Shown piece after piece: positions 11,248 through 40,563 of a stretch of DNA of 64,000 nucleotides. The position numbers were made by a program, and so were the translations under genes. The DNA comes from a virus. Position 1 is the first letter of the stretch. Every line of letters starts with the position of its first letter. The notes under the pieces were generated by a model. The model ran no database searches. It was not told the DNA's origin and worked only from the letters and a program-made list of their open reading frames with translations. The stretch spans positions 1-64,000 of IMG/VR virus record IMGVR_UViG_3300031578_000010. The stretch is one strand, 5' to 3'.

Positions 11248-11273
11248 GGCCTACTAATTACTATTAGTAGGGC
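11248..11273 (-). promoter_or_regulatory. Hairpin at the 3' end of the major capsid gene
   Basis: The plus strand reads GGC, CTACTAAT, TACT, ATTAGTAG, G, GCC: a perfect 8-bp stem with a 4-base loop, extended by GGC/GCC across a one-base bulge. It includes the capsid stop codon. No T-run follows on the minus strand, so it is more likely an mRNA-stabilising or processing structure than an intrinsic terminator. Confidence 0.4.
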
Positions 11274-12550
11274 CGGCGACGGATATTGATCGCCTTCACG
11301 ACCTTATCCAGGCTTTCGACCTGGCTATCCGTCTCGTTGATTACGACCGTCTCCCAACGGGCATAATCCTTATTCCATTCCGTGTAAACCTCTGTTTTGT
11401 CCAGGTTGCCCCAAATGAAATTGAGCGGATTTGCAAGCCACGCGATGCAGCCGTCGTTCAGCGTTCCTGCGCCTCCCGCGTCGGTCCCGACATAGGCGGC
11501 GACTGCAACTCCCAGCGTTGCCCACCCGTTTCCTGCGCCGATAGTCAGCGTTGCGCCCGAACCCGACGTCGGGTGCTGGAGATAGAGATGGCCGAAACCG
11601 TCATCCTGTGCGATGAGAGTTTCGAGTCCGGTTGCTGCCTTCAGGAGCGCGGCGACCTCATGGGCAGAGAAAACGCCCTGCGGCAGCGTGCAAGTTACGG
11701 CGCCTGCTCCGAGGTTAACGACGAGCGTGTCGTTCGTTCCTGTCACGACGTTCCACGGCCCCTGCGTCGTTCCGAGAATATGCCCTGCCGTCGCCACCGT
11801 GACATTGATGGACTTGCGTGAAGGCATGAGAGGAATCGAAATGATCGGAACACCGAAAGGCGCCTCGACGTTCCCCTTGTACGCCCTCTCACCGATCGCG
11901 TCGATTCTTTCCGAGTTGATTTCGACCCAATCGATCTGAAGAGACCGCGGCACGAAGAACCGAAGACCCGTATCGTCCTGATACGAATCCGGGAGCCTCC
12001 TGATCATGTTCGCGAAGAGAGTTTTTGAAATGAACTGGGCGACATGGTCGAGGATATGGGCGCCGTCCGTGATCTTGTCCAACCCGTCGTTGATCAGGAG
12101 CAGGTTAGCGATTGGCGTACCTGCGCTGATGGTATCGTCGCCGTTGATGTGCAGGTTTTCCATATCGGTCGCGATCTGAGCCATCATCGCTTCCGAAACC
12201 TGCTGCACAAGGCGCTCGCGGGAAACGTTCCGGCGAATTGCGCGGCGGGTGATGTGGTAACTGGAAACCATTTCCGCCGTTTCGAGGGAAACGTTGTTGA
12301 TCAGCGGCGTCCCGGTTTCCGAAATGAGAGAGTTGTCCGTCAGCCCGACGGTGATCGGCTCACCCACGTGGAGCTTCGGAATTTCAACGCGAGGGTTATC
12401 CATGATTTCCGTCCGGCAGAGGGGGATAAGCTTCGTGAAACGCCGAACGTAACTCAGGAAAACATCGCGCTGCTTCGCGTTCAGGAGCCCGCCGTTCAGG
12501 AAGGAACTTCCTGTAACAGCTTTGTGGATCATCTGGTCGTTTCCGTCCAT
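11264..12550 (-). CDS. Major capsid protein (HK97 fold) with an inserted domain
   Basis: This 428-aa protein follows the scaffold gene. Its N-terminal two thirds resemble P2 gpN/HK97-type capsid proteins, with E-loop-like PRVEIPKLHVGEPI and LRFFVPRSLQIDW, GVPIISIPLMP and the C-terminal VVKAINIRRRPY strand. Residues about 262-358 form an insertion that looks like a flagellin/hook IN-motif domain (TLVVNLGAGAVTCTLPQG, then ALLKAATG, LYLQHP, LTIGAGNGWATLG). That insertion may project from the capsomer. ATG at 12550 is chosen because AAGGAGAT lies just upstream; the longer start at 12577 lacks it. GC-rich codons agree with very high expression. Confidence 0.85.
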   Translation of the reverse strand: MDGNDQMIHKAVTGSSFLNGGLLNAKQRDVFLSYVRRFTKLIPLCRTEIMDNPRVEIPKLHVGEPITVGLTDNSLISETGTPLINNVSLETAEMVSSYHITRRAIRRNVSRERLVQQVSEAMMAQIATDMENLHINGDDTISAGTPIANLLLINDGLDKITDGAHILDHVAQFISKTLFANMIRRLPDSYQDDTGLRFFVPRSLQIDWVEINSERIDAIGERAYKGNVEAPFGVPIISIPLMPSRKSINVTVATAGHILGTTQGPWNVVTGTNDTLVVNLGAGAVTCTLPQGVFSAHEVAALLKAATGLETLIAQDDGFGHLYLQHPTSGSGATLTIGAGNGWATLGVAVAAYVGTDAGGAGTLNDGCIAWLANPLNFIWGNLDKTEVYTEWNKDYARWETVVINETDSQVESLDKVVKAINIRRRPY

Positions 12551-12616
12551 TTTTAATCTCCTTCTATTTGGAAACACTTTTTTTACAGATAAAGAGGTTC
12601 CGCTTTTCTTTGCGGA

Positions 12617-13519
12617 TTAGAAATCCTTGACAGTGTTGAAGATCGAGAAGAAGGGATTCTCCTCGTTCGTCACATCGGCATCCACCTCTTCGTGCCCGTA
12701 ATTCCTCTCATACGGCTTCTCATCGCCGCCCTTCTTTTCCTTGTTGCCCGTTTCGGCTCCGCCCAGAGCCTTTTCGATGGTCTCGACCCGCTTGAAAACG
12801 CCACCGAACTCCTCTTTGGCTGCTTCCTGGAAGAGTTTCACGAGCTCCTTGGCCCGATCGTCCAGCGCCTTCGTCAGCTCCTCCTTGATCTCCTTTGCGA
12901 TCTCCTCCTTTGCGACGTCCAACGTCTTTTTCAGTTCTTCTTTCTCCACGGCACCTTCCTCCTTTTTTTCCTCCGCGCCGCCTTTGGGCTCGTCTTTCTT
13001 CCGCATCTCGGCTACGGCTGCGGAAATATCCTTCAATTCCTTGGCCATTTCCTCGAATTTTTTCATGACTTTTTCCTCGTCCTTCGCCAGCTTATCGTCG
13101 CCGGCAGTCGCTTCGCCCTTTTGGGCTGCGGAAGGATAACTGGAGAGGATGCCTTCGAGGATTTGAATGATCGCCCGATACTCTCCGGCGACCGCTTTCG
13201 GGAGGGGCGCCTTGTCCGCCTTTTCGACGCCCTCTTCTCCTGCCTGCTCGCCCTTCTTCTGCATTCCTTCCAGGTTAGAAGCGAGGGAAATCAGGCGTTC
13301 AATTGCCGACTGCGTCTTCTTCAACACAGCCGCAAGAACCGGAGCGGGAATATCCTGTTTTTCGATTCCCGTTCCTTCCTCGTTTGTACCACCCATGGCT
13401 TTTCCTCCATCGCGTTTCACGATAGCGAACCGTTTTTTGTTCGCGGGAATATCCACCAAGGATACCTCGCGAGGATCTATGTCCTTTAGATCCCACTTAT
13501 ATCCCTCGTCCGTCGCCAT
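12617..13519 (-). CDS. Prohead scaffold protein (coiled coil)
   Basis: This 300-aa protein is dominated by Lys/Glu-rich coiled-coil segments (about residues 150-250). It has the REVSLVDIPAN motif near residues 17-27, commonly found next to XkdF/prohead protease domains in PBSX-like phages. It lies between the protease-bearing fusion gene and the major capsid gene, as expected for an internal scaffold that is later degraded. Strong AAAGGAGGCAAGAA ribosome site. The long opposite-strand Leu/Phe-rich ORF here is a shadow of this coiled coil. Confidence 0.8.
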   Translation of the reverse strand: MATDEGYKWDLKDIDPREVSLVDIPANKKRFAIVKRDGGKAMGGTNEEGTGIEKQDIPAPVLAAVLKKTQSAIERLISLASNLEGMQKKGEQAGEEGVEKADKAPLPKAVAGEYRAIIQILEGILSSYPSAAQKGEATAGDDKLAKDEEKVMKKFEEMAKELKDISAAVAEMRKKDEPKGGAEEKKEEGAVEKEELKKTLDVAKEEIAKEIKEELTKALDDRAKELVKLFQEAAKEEFGGVFKRVETIEKALGGAETGNKEKKGGDEKPYERNYGHEEVDADVTNEENPFFSIFNTVKDF

Positions 13520-13533
13520 TTCTTGCCTCCTTT

Positions 13534-16500
13534 CTAAGTTTTGCGCCGGACTCGCGTTCCAAAACCTCCAATTGAATAGCCCGTTACTTTCCCATCCTTT
13601 ATTTCTTTCCAGACATCATCCGAAATAACACGAGTTCCAAGTATCCAACTTCCTTTTTTAACCGTTTGAGTCCCTAATAAAAACTCTGTCGGTGCAATAT
13701 AGCATTCCATTATTCTAAATTTCTTTTTAAAATCCTCATGTTGATATCCGATCTTCTGATGAAACTCCATAAAGCGATGGCAAGCCTTCGCTATTTCTTC
13801 TTCACTACAAACATCCCCTTGAGCATCAACAGTATTGGGTTCTAATACCACCCCATATACAGTTTTTTGGTCTTTATTAACCTTGAATATAGGCGAAAAT
13901 ATTTCAAACTTTTCCAACTCCTTTGTAACAACAGGCTCGCCATAAGATGTGCGCTCAACATGATCAACAGTATCAGGTTTATTCACCTTATTTAATGCCG
14001 TGATAATAGGAATAAACCAAGCAACATGTGTCTTGCCATCCTTATCATCAACAAATATTTCCGAAGCTGTTATAGTAACTATATCCCCTAACTTGCCTTG
14101 AAAATTAGTATTGAATGTCTGACCTATTACTACATATAATTTTCCACCAAACTCCTTAACTTCAGTATATTTATCCTTATCGGCCATAGGAATAGGACCG
14201 ATTCCACCTGTAAAATTCCAAGTTTTATCGCTTCCTGCAACTTTGTGTTTATCAAGAATAATAGCGTTGATAATTCGTGGTATTTTATATTTTGCCCAAG
14301 ATGATGTTCTGCCTCCTAAAGTATAAGTTGAATTCCAGAGTTTAAGAACCGCCCCTTCAGATCCCGGAAGTAACTTTGCCTTTTCTATCGCATCCCGCAA
14401 CTCTTTTTCATTATTCGTTGTCCAATACTGAGTCGGCTCGAGATGCTTGAATCCCTTTATTTCTTTTTCGACTTCCTGTGCAACTTCATAATATGGTTTC
14501 CTTAGCCAATCCTCATTATCCCAATATAATATCCCAAAAACCCGACAAACTAAATTTGAATCATCCAAAGGTTTATCAGTCGCTGCCCATCTAACGAGCA
14601 TTTTCCTATTAACGATATCATTCCTCTTATCATTTGTGTATTCTATTAATTCTGAATCAAGTATAAAATCTCCTTTTATTCCTTTTACTTCTTCTGAAAT
14701 AGCCGGCATAGCAAAAGCCCTATCTTCCTGCTTATCTTCAAAGAATATTATTAACTTTGCATCCTTGCCATCCCCTTTCTTTTCAATTATGGTTCTATAT
14801 CCATTCCATTTAGGATTGACTATAACCTTCCCTTTGCCATTAAATATGGTTTTTGCCCATTTTTCAACTAACACATCAACATCAAAAAACTCTCCAATAT
14901 TAAATCCCCCTTTAGGCTTCAAAGGAATAAATTTAACAAAGGGCGCAAACTTGGCCTTCATAGAAGGGAATATTTCTTCTTCGCTGACTGCCTTAGCCTG
15001 CGGAGATTTTTCCTTTTGATATTTTAATTTCCAGAATTTAGAACCAGTCTCCTCCTGCTCCATTGTCCACAAACCTTTTATATGCTTTAAATCAACCTGA
15101 AATTTAATGAACCCCTCAGAATCCTCAAATATTGTCGCTTTGCCTTCATCGATCGTTTTTATCCACGAATACGTATTTTTTGTGCTATTTCCTAAAGTTC
15201 CAGGTTTAACTTCTCCATCAAGACCCAAGTATTTTTTATCCCTTATCTCCCTTACAGCAATTGATTCTATATTCTTTGTTGGGTCCTCCTCCATAACAAA
15301 AGAATCAAGTCCGCCTTTATCTTTAAGTTTAAAATAAAACGTCCACTCTTCCCTTGATGGCCCCACTCGAACAGTTGTTTGTCCCTTCCACATCTGATAT
15401 TGAAAACTAAAATCCACCTCCTTTTTCCTAATATCTCTAACAGATAACATTATCTTTTTCTTCTCGACTCTCTTATATTCATTATTTATTATCTCTATGT
15501 TCTCTTCAGTAAAATATTTCTCAGAAACTAAGGCATCTCGGATTTCCATTGCCTTAGCCCCCTTGCTTTCCCAAAAACGAAACTCCTTTGGCGTTTGTTG
15601 CATTAAAGACAATGGCATAGCAGAAACGCCATTTGGAGGCATACTTTTAGTTTTAACTGATCTTTTATTAATGACGGATGGCAAAAAAGTCTTAGAAATA
15701 AACCCACGCCAAAACGTAGGGTTCTTTCCTGCTCTTTCATATCCTTCAGTTGATAATAACCTTAAATGTAGAGAACCGTTAAAATATTTCCCATTCGTAA
15801 GAAAATATTCATGATAATACGGCTTCTGAATTCCCCACTCTACACAATATTTTTTAGGATCCTCAATTATAACGAATATTCCAGGCTCATTAGCCGTCGC
15901 CCCAACTTCTCCGGGTTTCACAACTCCCTCGACGGCAATCCAATCAATAGGCTCCGGTTTCTTTGGCGTACACTGTAAACCTTTAGGAGCAAGAATAGGT
16001 TTTAAAAATTCGTTTCCGTTTCCCATATCATAATTAGCAATTATCTTTCTGCCATCTGCAACAGTATTAATATCTTTAATCTTGCCGGGATATTGAAAGA
16101 ATAAGGTCCAACCTATTAATTCCTTTGTGCCAATATCCATCCTTAAATCAGCATGAACAGTATCGCCTCGAAAATGTAGCTGGACTACTGCGCGTCTTTT
16201 TCCTGTTTCTTTAGGATAAAACATTAATTCCGATTGCTTAATTATTCGATCATATATTTCAATATATAGAGGGTCTTCCTGTAACCCCTCTTCTGTTTCA
16301 ATATAATCATTATCGTTAAATGATTCTCCCATTTTCACAACAGATAAATCATTATTAACCTGGAATAATAAATCACCCAAAGGTATATTATTAGTAAAGG
16401 GACCGTCGAAATCGTCAGACATTACGCTAATTCTTTTGCTTAATTCCTTCGGCAGCATCCTTCCAAGTCTAAACTCTACAACTTTCAACATCCCTGCTGG

Positions 16501-16959
16501 AATATCCCCTTTAACTAAAAAATCAATATCTCCTTCGGTTTCGCCATTATTAACCAACCCTCCCGTTAAATAAACAAAAGGCTGCCTTATCTTAAAAGAT
16601 TTCAAGAGGGGCAGGACTTCGGATAGTTGTATTTTAGCCCCTATTTTATTTCCAGAAGAACTGATAGGCGCTAACTCTATAACCTCCTTTTTTATTTCCT
16701 CTTCCTCTGCCTTCTTCTGCGGTAATTTTCCAGGAAGAGAAGAGGCGTGTTTAAATCCTCGCGCTTTCATTTCGGCAACAACTAATTCATGGGCATTCCA
16801 GATATCCTCCAAGGAATAGACTAAATCCTTAGGCGACTTCCTTTTTAATGTCCAAAGGCTATGAAGGTGGCGATGTAGGTTGAGCAGAGCAGAGTCCTTT
16901 TCTTCCTTCAAGGACTTCACATTTATTTCAGCTATACTAAGTTTAATTAATGGTTCCAT
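13534..16959 (-). CDS. Giant fusion: nucleotidyltransferase-like, two LigD phosphoesterase-like, DNA-ligase-like and XkdF prohead protease domains
   Basis: This uninterrupted 1141-aa frame reads as five modules. Residues 1-90 are helical. Residues 110-200 resemble a nucleotidyltransferase fold (LTGGL at 131-135, GDIDF at 143-147). Residues 255-400 resemble the LigD 3'-phosphoesterase domain (VVQLHF, H269, D271, R273, EGVVKPGEVG). Residues 515-650 look like a second, degenerate copy (DGEVKPGTLG) that lacks the His/Asp/Arg set. Residues 700-990 follow ATP-dependent DNA ligase order: PKWNGYR at 716-722 (K717; KxNG instead of the usual KxDG), FILDSELIE at 765-773, EGAVLK at 868-873, SWAKYK at 887-892, then an OB-like region. 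Residues 1030-1137 match XkdF-type prohead protease (YGVVLEPNTVDAQGD, QHED with H1074, GYSIGG with S1129). The gene lies between a portal-side HxH gene and the scaffold, the normal protease position. Ligase activity is uncertain because of the Asp-to-Asn change in motif I. Confidence 0.8.
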   Translation of the reverse strand: MEPLIKLSIAEINVKSLKEEKDSALLNLHRHLHSLWTLKRKSPKDLVYSLEDIWNAHELVVAEMKARGFKHASSLPGKLPQKKAEEEEIKKEVIELAPISSSGNKIGAKIQLSEVLPLLKSFKIRQPFVYLTGGLVNNGETEGDIDFLVKGDIPAGMLKVVEFRLGRMLPKELSKRISVMSDDFDGPFTNNIPLGDLLFQVNNDLSVVKMGESFNDNDYIETEEGLQEDPLYIEIYDRIIKQSELMFYPKETGKRRAVVQLHFRGDTVHADLRMDIGTKELIGWTLFFQYPGKIKDINTVADGRKIIANYDMGNGNEFLKPILAPKGLQCTPKKPEPIDWIAVEGVVKPGEVGATANEPGIFVIIEDPKKYCVEWGIQKPYYHEYFLTNGKYFNGSLHLRLLSTEGYERAGKNPTFWRGFISKTFLPSVINKRSVKTKSMPPNGVSAMPLSLMQQTPKEFRFWESKGAKAMEIRDALVSEKYFTEENIEIINNEYKRVEKKKIMLSVRDIRKKEVDFSFQYQMWKGQTTVRVGPSREEWTFYFKLKDKGGLDSFVMEEDPTKNIESIAVREIRDKKYLGLDGEVKPGTLGNSTKNTYSWIKTIDEGKATIFEDSEGFIKFQVDLKHIKGLWTMEQEETGSKFWKLKYQKEKSPQAKAVSEEEIFPSMKAKFAPFVKFIPLKPKGGFNIGEFFDVDVLVEKWAKTIFNGKGKVIVNPKWNGYRTIIEKKGDGKDAKLIIFFEDKQEDRAFAMPAISEEVKGIKGDFILDSELIEYTNDKRNDIVNRKMLVRWAATDKPLDDSNLVCRVFGILYWDNEDWLRKPYYEVAQEVEKEIKGFKHLEPTQYWTTNNEKELRDAIEKAKLLPGSEGAVLKLWNSTYTLGGRTSSWAKYKIPRIINAIILDKHKVAGSDKTWNFTGGIGPIPMADKDKYTEVKEFGGKLYVVIGQTFNTNFQGKLGDIVTITASEIFVDDKDGKTHVAWFIPIITALNKVNKPDTVDHVERTSYGEPVVTKELEKFEIFSPIFKVNKDQKTVYGVVLEPNTVDAQGDVCSEEEIAKACHRFMEFHQKIGYQHEDFKKKFRIMECYIAPTEFLLGTQTVKKGSWILGTRVISDDVWKEIKDGKVTGYSIGGFGTRVRRKT

Positions 16960-16965
16960 TTTTAA

Positions 16966-17280
16966 TTATTCCTTCGGAGCGGCCTTCTTCGGAACGAGAT
17001 CCTTGACCCTAAAATTAATTCGATGCTTATGGCTTTCATCCGAAGAAGTGAAGCCCAAGATATCCCCGCCCACGACAGGAAGATCGACTTTGTGAACATG
17101 CCCGTTAACCCGCTCCGTTCTTCCTGTTATTTTCTCCTTGGAAATGATGAGAGAAATCCTGTGCTGATGGCCAGCCATGATATTGGAAAAGAACTCCGCT
17201 CGCGGCGCCTTTTTCTCGATGCCGCAGAAATCGTCCATTTCCTCTCTTGAAGCGTTCAACCTTTTCGCGATGGGTTCCAT
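16966..17280 (-). CDS. Small HxH-motif protein in the head cluster
   Basis: This 104-aa protein contains three HxH motifs at regular spacing (GHQHRI, GHVHKV, SHKHRI), each followed by a hydrophobic strand. Repeated HxH in phage proteins can coordinate metal ions along trimeric needles or beta structures, as in T4 gp37 tips. It lies between the gp7-like gene and the protease fusion. The related protein at 28846-29526 has the same motif type. A structural or internal-head role is inferred. GAGGAAG precedes the ATG. Confidence 0.75.
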   Translation of the reverse strand: MEPIAKRLNASREEMDDFCGIEKKAPRAEFFSNIMAGHQHRISLIISKEKITGRTERVNGHVHKVDLPVVGGDILGFTSSDESHKHRINFRVKDLVPKKAAPKE

Positions 17281-17323: not shown

Positions 17324-18520
17324 TTAAACCCCTTGGGCCTCTTCCCAATCTTGTATTTTGACATCTTCTTCTGAAATAACGACTGAAGACCTGCAATGCG
17401 CGTGAAAAGGAGGCAGCGCCGGAGGATTTCCTCCTCGCGGGGCCGTCTCAACCACTTCCTGAGATGTTATTTTCTTTGCAGGTTTAAACCCCTTATCCGT
17501 TGCCTTAAATGTTGAATTAGGAAGATATATTTTTTCGCCTTTAGGCCCTCCATAGAACAAGGCGGGTTTCCCTTGCTCGGCTCTTACAGAATCAAAATTT
17601 AACCAAGGACGCAAAGCCTTAAAGGCATTTATATCACTATCAGATCTTGAATCCGGAATGCCATTTTCTTGGATATCTTTGACTATTTTCCTAGCCAATT
17701 CAACTTCAAAAACCATCCCATCCATTGCTTCGCATATCTCACTCGTTCTTTCGTCCATCACTGCTATAATTTCATATTTTCTAATTCTTGCCTCTTCAAA
17801 TGCTGTAACCTGAGCAAAATTTCTTGCTCTATTGATAACATCGCTTGCTAATATGCTTAAATAAGTATTTCCTCTCTGTGCAAGAACAGAAGGAAGTTCT
17901 TCTCGCATCAAAGAAGCTAAAGCGCTTTTTGGCAAATTCTCTTGAACTATCCGAGACGCCAAAGTATTAACAGAGCCTATTAAAGTTTTATCGTATATTC
18001 CACTTATAAAAAAGTTATTATTATTGTTTAAAATGTTTATTACGGCCTTATCTTGTTGAGTCAATCCCGCCTTTATAGATCGTTTTAATTTCTTAGCAGC
18101 AAGGGCTACAACCTTTTTGGTTGCCACTATCTGGTTTTTTAAAGCCTGTTTAATAGACTTTGTTGCCTGCAAAGCAACAGATGGGCCAAGTTCCTTTTTC
18201 AATGTATTATGTAATTTGTTGAGGGCTTTCTCATTTATCCTATAATTTCCAGGTTTGCCAGATATTCCATTCTTAATAAAGGAAGCAATAGCCGATCCAC
18301 TTTTGACTTTAGTTTTTATTTTAAAAGCAAAAGCGCTTCGCATAGCCTTAAATGCTTTTAATTCATTTACACCCGGATGATCCGGGCCGGTGCCTATTGT
18401 TATCCCGAATCCTTGTTTCCTTACTCCGCCCAGCCTGATAATTATTTCCTGAACTATCTTCTGACTTCTTATCAGGTTTTCAAGCGAAGTATTCTTAAAT
18501 ATTTTATATTTCAAGGTCAT
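17324..18520 (-). CDS. Head morphogenesis protein (Mu gpF / SPP1 gp7-like)
   Basis: This protein of about 398 aa ends with the diagnostic segment of the phage Mu F-like family: RARNFAQVTAFEEARI, MDERTSEICEAMDG and PPFHAHCRSSVV. The Cys and His residues of that segment (C of SEIC, HAHC) are present. Family members act early in head assembly or as minor capsid proteins bound to the portal. ATG at 18520 is preferred because GGGGAGAG lies upstream; this gives a 17-base overlap with the portal gene. The N-terminal 200 residues are basic and helical. Confidence 0.88.
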   Translation of the reverse strand: MTLKYKIFKNTSLENLIRSQKIVQEIIIRLGGVRKQGFGITIGTGPDHPGVNELKAFKAMRSAFAFKIKTKVKSGSAIASFIKNGISGKPGNYRINEKALNKLHNTLKKELGPSVALQATKSIKQALKNQIVATKKVVALAAKKLKRSIKAGLTQQDKAVINILNNNNNFFISGIYDKTLIGSVNTLASRIVQENLPKSALASLMREELPSVLAQRGNTYLSILASDVINRARNFAQVTAFEEARIRKYEIIAVMDERTSEICEAMDGMVFEVELARKIVKDIQENGIPDSRSDSDINAFKALRPWLNFDSVRAEQGKPALFYGGPKGEKIYLPNSTFKATDKGFKPAKKITSQEVVETAPRGGNPPALPPFHAHCRSSVVISEEDVKIQDWEEAQGV

Positions 18521-20060
18521 AGAGACTCTCCCCAATATCCTGCCTTTCGCCGATAGCCTTTTCAAGAGTATTGTTTAAACTCATGAGGGAATCTATTATA
18601 GAAGAATCCTTTGCTCTATCCGCAGGAACTTTCATTCCTTGCATAACCAGAGGCAACGGCATATCCGCCCAATTTTCTGTAAATCTTGGCTTGCCTAAAT
18701 AATCTCGGATATCGTTAGGAGTTATCCCTCCTGTCCTTTCCATTTTCTTATATATCGTAGCCAATCCTTCGAAGTCTGTTTTCTTCGGTCGAACCAATTT
18801 AAGCCATAATATTTTAATTCCCATAGCCCTCATCAGTGTTTTATTTAATATAAATTCTATTTCAGCAATATCCGGTTCAAAAGTCTGGTCATTCGTTATT
18901 GATCTTCCTACGCTTCCTCCTGCCCGCGTGATATCAGAAGCAAAGAAAACAGGATGTAACCCGAATACCTCCGATATTTCCCCATCATTTCTATCCTGAT
19001 ACTTTAAATAACCTGCATCCTCAGCAATGCCAACAGTAAGTTTATGGAACTCTATTTTGACATCTTCTTTTTCTGTCATTGACCCTTCGCGGGTTCCCGC
19101 CTGAATAATCATTATTCTGCCGGTATTTTTTGTTCCCTTTCCTTTTCGTTCCAGGAATTCTTTTATATCTTCTCGGCTTTCCTTCGATAGCCTATATGGA
19201 CCGCTCACCACTATTGCAATTCTTGGAGTTGCATCATTCTCAAAGAATGTAGAATTTCTTTCTCCCGCAAATCTGCTGCCCGCAATAGCTGGCGCAGTTG
19301 ATAGATGTCTCGGAATTCCATAAGATGATTCCCTATATCCTGCAACTTTAAAATGTATTAATTCCCGGGCTATTAGTTCTGGCTTAGTTAATCCCGAGGT
19401 TTTAATTCCTGTATTTTTATCTACAACATCTTTATCGCCCCAATCCTTAAAATGAGTTACCTTCCTATTTTTATCTATTGCAACAAACCCGCCTTTCTTC
19501 TTTATCCTGACCGTTTGTCCGACAATTCGTTCAAGACCAATAGGAAGATAGTCGCCATCCTTTGTTGTTTTAGTTAAAGACCTATGAACAGCGAGATAGC
19601 CATTTCCTATAACTTCTCGATCGCCGATTACTTCTTTAAGAATAACTGAAAAAGGCATAGTAGGATGAGGATCATCAAGGAAATCTTCTATTAACTGTGA
19701 CTCATCCTCGATATTCCGTTTAAGTTCTTCCAGTTGTTTCTTTTCATCCTCCGTCATTTCTTTTCTTGAACGTTCTATAATCCTTTTATATCTCTTTTTT
19801 GGTTCTAATTCATAACCAAGGCCAGCAGCATTAGTTGCACGTATTTGAACACAAGCAGCCAACCTTGTGGATATTTCAGGAGCAATAGCCCAATCATCTA
19901 TTGAGAAGGGCGGTTTCTCTAATTCCATTCCGCCCAACGAATAGAAGGTAACTGAAACAGAATTCCCGCCATCAAGGCGCTTTCCAAGCGGCGCGCCTTT
20001 CTGCAAAGGCTCGTCAATAAAAACATCCACTTCGATAGGGCTTTGTTTTTTCTTTACCAT
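18504..20060 (-). CDS. Portal protein (PBSX/Mu-like family)
   Basis: This 518-aa protein has portal family features: an N-terminal ISTRLAACVQIRATNAAGLGY region, VIGNGYLAVHRS, IGLERIVGQTVRI, HFKVAGYRESSYGIPRHL and GLHPVFFASDITRAGG. It forms the dodecameric gate for DNA packaging at one capsid vertex. Unusually, the terminase genes are not adjacent but lie 24 kb away. It is followed by the gp7-like gene. Confidence 0.9.
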   Translation of the reverse strand: MVKKKQSPIEVDVFIDEPLQKGAPLGKRLDGGNSVSVTFYSLGGMELEKPPFSIDDWAIAPEISTRLAACVQIRATNAAGLGYELEPKKRYKRIIERSRKEMTEDEKKQLEELKRNIEDESQLIEDFLDDPHPTMPFSVILKEVIGDREVIGNGYLAVHRSLTKTTKDGDYLPIGLERIVGQTVRIKKKGGFVAIDKNRKVTHFKDWGDKDVVDKNTGIKTSGLTKPELIARELIHFKVAGYRESSYGIPRHLSTAPAIAGSRFAGERNSTFFENDATPRIAIVVSGPYRLSKESREDIKEFLERKGKGTKNTGRIMIIQAGTREGSMTEKEDVKIEFHKLTVGIAEDAGYLKYQDRNDGEISEVFGLHPVFFASDITRAGGSVGRSITNDQTFEPDIAEIEFILNKTLMRAMGIKILWLKLVRPKKTDFEGLATIYKKMERTGGITPNDIRDYLGKPRFTENWADMPLPLVMQGMKVPADRAKDSSIIDSLMSLNNTLEKAIGERQDIGESLYDLEI

Positions 20061-40049: not shown

Positions 40050-40179
40050 TTCCAATTTTTTTTACATAGGCGGTCACGAGTTTACGGCTTCCGCTATCGC
40101 CGCCAAGTTATCTCTTGGTCAGATTTAGGGCCAGGCCCGAGGGTTACTCGATTTTATTTCCACAGGCGCAGCAATTTAG

Positions 40180-40563
40180 TGGAGGCGGCGGGAATCGAAC
40201 CCGCGTCCCGTCCGAGCATTCCCGCTCCGTCTACAATCATGTTCCTTTGTTCTGTATTCGGCACAAAGGAAAAGGCCTCTCCGGAACTTTCTCCGGATAA
40301 GTCAGCACCTATTTCTCGCATAATATCCGGCGCGAATACTATGCCAGTCTGAATCGCGGCGTTACTTCACAGAACTCAGACAATTCCATGAGCAACGGAA
40401 TGATCGTCAAGCAACCATTCTGGCGGCCATCTCGCTCCTGAAATTCAGCGGCGAGGCGACCTTCTTATTCTTGTTGGCACTTAGTTTTTTTGTGCTCCGT
40501 ATCGTGGTAGCATACGGATTGCAGGAAACGCTTCAACCCGCCGGTCGAGCCCTTTACGCCCCC
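40180..40563 (-). ncRNA. ssrA: Phage-encoded transfer-messenger RNA (tmRNA)
   Basis: The minus strand starts GGGGGCGTAAAGGGCTCGAC at 40563, the tmRNA 5' tRNA-like half with the D-loop-type CTCGACCGG. It ends at 40180 with the T arm GCGGGTTCGATTCCCGC and acceptor strand CGCCTCC plus discriminator A. Acceptor pairing GGGGGCG/CGCCUCC is complete with one G-U pair; CCA is not encoded. Total length 384 nt is typical. Between the halves lies the reading frame at 40407-40478, preceded by AGT as in known tmRNAs, and later GC-rich pseudoknot-like repeats. tmRNA rescues stalled ribosomes and tags nascent proteins. It starts 11 bases after the upstream gene, suggesting release by RNase P. Confidence 0.95.
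40407..40478 (-). other. tmRNA tag-peptide reading frame (23 aa)
   Basis: From resume codon GCC at 40478 the frame reads ANKNKKVASPLN, then FRSEMAARMVA and TGA at 40407. The resume codon context AAGT-GCC agrees with known tmRNAs. The start ANK is typical, but the end RMVA differs from the usual LAA/VAA degron. The tag is long and basic. Confidence 0.85.

What the first reader, a model, noticed from the sequence alone, without database searches (positions are those of the whole stretch)
13534..16959. Prohead protease fused to nucleotidyltransferase-, phosphoesterase- and DNA-ligase-like domains
A single 1141-residue frame combines a nucleotidyltransferase-like domain, two copies of the LigD phosphoesterase fold (the second apparently inactive), a complete-looking ATP-dependent ligase module with motif order I, III, IV, V and an OB region, and an XkdF-type capsid protease at the C-terminus. 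Seen directly: order of motifs and no stop codons. Known: XkdF normally is a small protease by itself. Inference: the repair domains may be carried into the prohead and cut free there, giving an end-repair enzyme that is packaged with, or ejected alongside, DNA. The ligase lysine motif is KWNG, so the usual Asp is Asn and activity may be altered.
Basis: partly seen in the sequence, partly recalled or inferred. Interest (0 to 1): 0.92.

Follow-up and report, generated by a model that had tools for sequence, protein, structure and literature searches.

The report
Virus capsid protease fused to DNA-repair enzymes
A tailed virus makes one long protein that joins a DNA-end-repair kit (nucleotidyltransferase, LigD-type phosphoesterase, DNA ligase) to the protease that matures its capsid, and the same kit recurs in head-gene clusters of about a hundred uncultivated viruses, so the repair enzymes may travel inside the virus particle.

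Summary
The finding is real. Window 13534-16959 on the MINUS strand is one 1141-aa frame with five modules: a Pol-beta-type nucleotidyltransferase (NT), an active-looking LigD-type phosphoesterase (PE1), a degenerate PE copy (PE2), an ATP-dependent DNA ligase (LIG) and an XkdF capsid protease (XKD). It is not an assembly join: overlapping contigs agree, and other loci have the same module order. The PE model (pLDDT 91) matches only LigD-type phosphoesterases in the PDB. The repair modules belong to a large, apparently undescribed virus family (106 distinct loci; only named relative found: ANMV-1 virus), lying between portal/MuF-type genes and capsid genes, in two orders: NT-LIG-PE-PE, or NT-PE-PE-LIG-XKD as here. 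XKD was fused in at least two separate clades and is the next gene in others. All 15 ligases of the NT-PE-PE-LIG clade have Asn in motif I (KxNG) where the others have KxDG; some members of that clade have lost the ligase core. No Ku and no separate second ligase was found in this virus or 21 relatives. Best explanation, partly inferred: a polyvalent protein drawn into the prohead by its protease, cut there, and ejected with the DNA to mend its ends or nicks. Packaging and enzyme activity are untested.

The parts
13534..16959 (-). whole ORF, 1141 aa, NT-PE1-PE2-LIG-XKD fusion
16762..16920 (-). N-terminal helical hairpin (about aa 14-66), recurs in front of the NT in relatives; function unknown
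   Evidence: AF2 helices 14-18, 22-41, 50-66; BLAST matches in L006, L008, L009/L010
16327..16650 (-). NT: Pol-beta-type nucleotidyltransferase (aa 104-211), G133, D144, D146
   Evidence: invariant 72/72; fold match to MNT-type NTases weak
15520..16212 (-). PE1: LigD-type phosphoesterase (aa 250-480), H262, H269, D271, R273
15019..15417 (-). PE2: second, degenerate phosphoesterase fold (aa 515-647), metal ligands lost
13996..14940 (-). LIG: ATP-dependent DNA ligase core and OB region (aa 674-988)
   Evidence: PF01068 E 6.7e-17; motif census
14800..14811 (-). ligase motif I KWNG (aa 717-720), Asn in place of Asp
13549..13911 (-). XKD: XkdF-type capsid maturation protease (aa 1017-1137), D1045, H1074, S1129
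   Evidence: PF14550 E 7.9e-33; invariant 49/49
18504..20060 (-). portal protein, upstream
   Evidence: PF04860 E 1e-24, phrog_12
17324..18565 (-). MuF-type minor head protein, upstream
   Evidence: PF04233 E 2.1e-5, below cut-off; phrog_115 minor head protein E 2.4e-12
16966..17280 (-). 104-aa gene of unknown function directly upstream
   Evidence: no convincing match
12617..13519 (-). downstream gene, possible scaffold (inference from position)
   Evidence: weak phrog_13975 and phrog_3017 matches
11264..12577 (-). virion structural protein, probable major capsid protein (inference)
   Evidence: phrog_1623 virion structural protein E 1.2e-47

Best explanation
This is a virion-directed polyvalent DNA-repair protein. 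It is made from the head-gene cluster (shown). Its C-terminal XkdF protease, which works inside proheads in known phages, carries the attached NT-PE1-PE2-LIG chain into the prohead (inferred) and cuts itself free (inferred). The repair chain stays with the packaged DNA and is ejected with it (inferred). In the new host PE1 removes blocking 3' groups (fold and metal ligands shown, activity inferred), PE2 serves as a non-catalytic binding or scaffolding copy (inferred), NT adds or modifies nucleotides at the end (substrate inferred), and LIG seals nicks or joined ends (motifs shown; the KxNG change may alter the adenylate-transfer step). The target would be the virus's own entering linear DNA: nicks, damaged ends or circularisation. 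No Ku of its own was found.
For: Modules. Gene position: of 78 upstream neighbours scanned, 33 match portal phrog_2662 and 32 phrog_12 (sets overlap), others terminase or minor head proteins; downstream neighbours match several different major-head-protein families and head maturation proteases. XKD is fused in two separate clades of the PE1 tree, the order-B clade (100/97) and an order-A clade of 14 rows (100/99), plus L078; in others it is the next gene. Protease residues D1045/H1074/S1129 are invariant in 49/49, PE1 metal ligands in 48-49/49. Relatives carry further DNA-acting cargo: D12 adenine methyltransferase in 9 of 29, pyrimidine-dimer glycosylase 1, PNK 3'-phosphatase 1. The head ligase is the only DNA ligase found in G000; in the 21 sampled relatives no NAD-dependent ligase and no second ATP-dependent ligase gene was found (one record has two ligase matches in one frame). 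Precedents: polyvalent proteins lie beside virion genes and are predicted to be packaged and injected (PMC5512222); giant-phage and T4 internal proteins are trimmed by the prohead protease and some are ejected (PMC5694885).
Against: No virion proteomics or cleavage data. No Ku in G000 or 21 relatives. In the order-B clade the ligase has Asn in motif I, one member has lost the catalytic lysine (L029 EWNG), and L016, L017, L020, L021, L024 and L026 lack the ligase core, so sealing cannot be essential there. PE1 lacks the His84/Tyr88 pair that P. aeruginosa LigD needs (E336/W340 here, PMC8656161). Many members, ANMV-1 among them, have no fused protease. Late expression alone could explain the gene position.
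Confidence: 0.5

Rival explanations
1. The repair enzymes act in the producing cell, not in the virion. The fusion only couples late expression; the protease frees them, and they mend nicks or ends of replicating or concatemeric DNA before packaging.
For: It is the only DNA ligase found in this virus, which encodes its own Pol III alpha, RecA, SbcC/SbcD-like proteins and 5'-3' exonuclease. ANMV-1 and others have the enzyme without a fused protease.
Against: The replication genes seen in this window lie in another cluster (about 46.9-63.9 kb), while this gene lies among head genes, as in many other lineages. A need for late DNA repair does not explain repeated fusion to a protease that works inside the prohead.
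Confidence: 0.25
2. Virion-borne RNA-repair or anti-defence kit: NT, PE, 2H phosphoesterase and ligase mend tRNAs or other RNA cut by host defence nucleases just after entry.
For: 2H (2'-5' RNA ligase-like) domains in L008 and in 2 of 29 full-length members; a PNK 3'-phosphatase in one; the NT fold resembles minimal MNT-type NTases, weakly; Asn at this motif I position also occurs in some RNA ligases (own knowledge).
Against: The ligase matches DNA-ligase models (E down to 1.1e-40) and RNA_ligase only at E 0.038 in L010; other cargo is DNA-directed (adenine methyltransferase, pyrimidine-dimer glycosylase).
Confidence: 0.15
3. In the order-B clade, to which this protein belongs, the repair part is decaying into a structural or scaffold segment of the protease, with little or no catalysis.
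For: Asn in motif I of all 15 order-B ligases, lysine lost in L029, ligase core lost in several; His84/Tyr88 equivalents missing in PE1.
Against: Outside motif I the ligase residues are kept (E770, E868, K890 in 77/77), as are PE1 metal ligands and NT aspartates, which is not what decay predicts. The window ligase itself is full-length. The missing H84/Y88 pair is family-wide, not special to this clade.
Confidence: 0.1

Closest known systems
AJP62006 'ATP-dependent DNA ligase' of ANMV-1 virus (KP703175)
   Same: NT, LIG, PE1 and PE2 all homologous (about 27-38% identity by segment); gene directly follows the portal gene
   Different: Order NT-LIG-PE1-PE2, motif I KFDG, no XkdF; annotated only as a ligase
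Bacterial LigD (NHEJ ligase: polymerase, phosphoesterase, ligase)
   Same: One chain with a PE of the same fold, an ATP-dependent ligase and a nucleotidyl-transferring domain
   Different: No AEP-type polymerase domain found; a Pol-beta-type NTase instead, a second dead PE, no Ku, H84/Y88 replaced, viral head-gene location, capsid protease attached
XkdF / Peptidase_S78_2 head maturation proteases
   Same: Domain match over the curated cut-off, conserved Asp/His/Ser, same place in the head cluster
   Different: XkdF in the two cultivated-phage records opened here is a small protein (157 and 211 aa); here it carries about 1000 aa of enzyme modules
Polyvalent proteins of phages and conjugative elements (Iyer et al. 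2017, PMC5512222)
   Same: Several enzymatic domains in one chain, encoded beside virion genes, sometimes with a protease
   Different: The passages found in that paper show no LigD-type PE-ligase module and no XkdF fusion; packaging of this protein is untested

Membership tests
XkdF (PF14550) capsid protease | Domain match above curated cut-off | tested here: met
   E 7.9e-33, 113.6 bits against 24
XkdF (PF14550) capsid protease | Conserved catalytic-type His and Ser | tested here: met
   D1045, H1074, S1129 in 49/49; catalytic role itself inferred
LigD | 3'-phosphoesterase domain with metal triad H42/H48/D50 and R52 | tested here: met
   H262 48/49, H269, D271, R273 49/49; fold hits all LigD-type PE
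LigD | Phosphate-binding H84 and Y88 | tested here: not met
   register by eye: E336 (E or Q in 47/49) and W340 (49/49); requirement from PMC8656161
LigD | ATP-dependent ligase with motif I KxDG | tested here: not met
   KWNG; KxNG in 14 of 15 order-B ligases and ExNG in the other
LigD | AEP-type polymerase domain | tested here: not met
   no primase/polymerase family match in P0001; a Pol-beta-type NTase is present instead
LigD | Ku partner | tested here: not met
   no Ku in G000 or 21 relatives; a host Ku cannot be excluded
Pol-beta superfamily nucleotidyltransferase | hG[GS]-x9-DxD motif | tested here: met
   G133, D144, D146 in 72/72
Pol-beta superfamily nucleotidyltransferase | Fold and third acidic residue | tested here: inconclusive
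   MNT-type hits E 0.46 at best; D196 in 45/72
Polyvalent proteins | Several distinct enzymatic domains, encoded among virion genes | tested here: met
Polyvalent proteins | Packaged in the particle and delivered to the new host | not testable with these tools
   needs virion proteomics and a transfer assay

The most novel reading that the evidence does not exclude
Many tailed viruses of bacteria and archaea carry inside the particle a self-contained, Ku-less end-repair machine, assembled independently of bacterial LigD (a Pol-beta-type NTase in place of the AEP polymerase), delivered to the prohead by fusion to the capsid protease and ejected with the genome to mend or circularise it.
Probability: 0.33. 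Interest if true: 0.92.

Novelty: new variant of a known kind. Interest (0 to 1): 0.8.

Why it matters
It points to DNA repair as virion cargo: a LigD-like kit in the head-gene clusters of about a hundred uncultivated viruses, visible in the annotated phage collection only as one 'ATP-dependent DNA ligase' label. It makes a direct question testable (is a ligase/phosphoesterase in the particle?) and offers a natural series of module orders, ligase losses and one fixed active-site change (Asp to Asn) for studying how ligases and polyproteins evolve.

Tried and rejected
Plus-strand reading of the coordinates: full of stops. Assembly chimera: rejected. Precedent by 'DNA methyltransferase/prohead protease' annotations in Pseudomonas and Rhizobium phages: opened two records; the proteins are 157 and 211 aa, about the size of XkdF alone, so these labels are no evidence of a methyltransferase fusion. 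NT by sequence profile against the PDB: only non-significant TdT matches; by fold: no significant hit. Ku and a second DNA ligase: none found. Literature: no paper found in the held library that describes this protein or an XkdF-ligase fusion.

Full report
OBSERVATION. The ORF lies on the minus strand (13534-16959, 1141 aa). The plus strand at these coordinates is full of stops. Pfam gives XkdF at aa 1024-1136 (E 7.9e-33) and DNA_ligase_A_M at aa 703-892 (E 6.7e-17), both above cut-off. Contigs L002 and L003 (5.3 kb each) are 100% identical to the window, and L003 crosses the LIG-XKD join. L001, 9.9 kb, differs by one substitution and a 1-nt deletion at codon 987 (ACGG to AGG), which splits the frame just there. 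Since homologues have the same fusion (below), L001 is more likely an error or a broken variant than the window.

FAMILY. The best match in the phage collection is ANMV-1 virus, AJP62006, an 'ATP-dependent DNA ligase' right after the portal gene. It shares NT, LIG, PE1 and PE2, but in the order NT-LIG-PE1-PE2 and without XkdF. Profiles of PE1 and NT then reached many viral contigs (147 confirmed for PE1, 80 kept; 54 for NT) and four loci in GTDB genomes: one Planctomycetota, two Archaeoglobales and one Thermoprotei MAG contig. After removal of duplicates 106 loci remain. The commonest full arrangements are NT-LIG-PE1-PE2 (23), NT-PE1-PE2-LIG-XKD (19), NT-LIG-PE1-PE2-XKD (7) and NT-LIG-PE1-PE2 followed by a separate XKD gene (5); in others the modules are divided over two or three neighbouring genes. 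The loci were found through PE1 or NT, so the presence of those two is by selection; LIG and XKD were not required by the search. Some loci are cut by contig ends.

MODULES. PE: the profile finds LigD-type phosphoesterases in the PDB (E 2.3e-8); Pfam LigD_N matches 15 of 50 members; the AF2 model of PE1+PE2 (pLDDT 91) has six hits with E <= 1e-3, all LigD-type PEs. PE1 keeps the metal ligands and Arg of LigD (H42, H48, D50, R52 correspond to H262, H269, D271, R273; 48-49 of 49), but in the register of H84 and Y88 (placed by eye on the HPLxY / EPxxW motifs) it has E336 and W340, the latter invariant, and a new invariant E384. Point mutants of H84 or Y88 are inactive in P. aeruginosa LigD (PMC8656161), so PE1 chemistry may differ. 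PE2 has V, E, T and Y in place of the four ligands in this protein (register taken from the HMMER alignment). NT: Gly133, Asp144 and Asp146 are invariant in 72 of 72; model pLDDT 85; the best NTase fold matches are MNT-type, not significant. LIG: motif I lysine 75/77, E770, E868 and K890 77/77. XKD: D1045, H1074 and S1129 49/49.

ORDER AND THE ASN. Order A means LIG before PE1, order B means LIG after PE2. On the PE1 tree the order-B proteins form one supported group with L044 (22 rows, 100/97), the window branching early. All 15 order-B ligases have Asn in motif I; every order-A ligase with that position aligned has Asp. L029 has also lost the lysine (EWNG). L016, L017, L020, L021, L024 and L026 lack the ligase core and keep at most its C-terminal part. 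In Chlorella virus ligase and T4 Rnl2 the mutants D29A and R55A leave undetectable or trace activity on adenylated substrate, whereas the equivalent human LigIV mutants are proficient, and T4 Rnl2 has His at the Asp position (PMC6035275). So KxNG does not by itself mean inactive, but ligation in this clade may be altered or dispensable.

CONTEXT. Upstream neighbours are portal, terminase and minor-head proteins; downstream neighbours are major head proteins of several families and head maturation proteases. In the window itself the order is portal, MuF-type protein, a 104-aa gene, this ORF, an unknown gene, a probable capsid protein. XkdF fusion occurs in at least two separate clades. Further cargo in relatives: D12 adenine methyltransferase 9 of 29, metallo-beta-lactamase fold 5, 2H 2, pyrimidine-dimer glycosylase 1, PNK 3'-phosphatase 1. 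The virus has a contractile-tail sheath protein, Pol III alpha, RecA, SbcC/SbcD-like proteins and a tmRNA. Neither it nor 21 relatives show Ku or an NAD-dependent ligase, and no second ATP-dependent ligase gene was found; one record (G008) has two ligase matches in one frame. These records may be incomplete.

MECHANISM. Shown: one chain, conserved catalytic-type residues in NT, PE1, LIG and XKD, head-cluster position, separate fusions to the protease. Inferred: entry into the prohead with the protease, self-cleavage, ejection, and repair of the entering DNA. Known precedents for the inferred steps are polyvalent proteins predicted to be injected (PMC5512222) and prohead-protease-trimmed ejection proteins (PMC5694885). 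Mycobacteriophages Omega and Corndog, which express Ku and employ host LigD, show that a phage can need end-joining for infection (Pitcher et al. 2006 as cited in PMC7719229). Rivals are repair in the producing cell, RNA repair, and decay to a structural role.

NOVELTY. No description was found in the held library, which lacks most subscription journals. I file it as a new variant of polyvalent virion-linked proteins, LigD-like in what it may do but not a member of LigD.

Noticed in passing
window 40177-40563, minus strand: The virus carries a complete tmRNA gene (Rfam RF00023, 105 bits; tag ANKNKKVASPLNFRSEMAARMVA), which suggests a bacterial host.
   Followed up: partly
L103 12263-17470, L092 2135-7081, L115 6053-12973: Intein-like insertions inside the ligase of relatives; in L103 the insertion lies directly behind motif I (KYDG|CFPYRT ... 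VSN|S)..
   Followed up: partly
L039, L040, L041, L045, L051, L065: In one clade the ligase is divided between two neighbouring genes, motif I in the first and motif IV in the second..
   Followed up: no
KP703175.1 1913-3193 (L005): The ANMV-1 gene labelled 'MutT-like phage hydrolase' is a portal protein (PF06381, E 3.2e-22).
   Followed up: yes
L144 3405-3875, L145 3474-4106: Proteins of 157 and 211 aa labelled methyltransferase/capsid or prohead protease in Pseudomonas and Rhizobium phages look like XkdF alone; the methyltransferase label is probably wrong.
   Followed up: partly
L008 8012-10492: A gene upstream of the LIG-PE1-PE2-XKD gene joins a 2H phosphoesterase to the NT module.
   Followed up: no
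window 16762-16920, minus strand: A helical hairpin in front of the NT recurs in relatives; no Pfam family was matched there.
   Followed up: no
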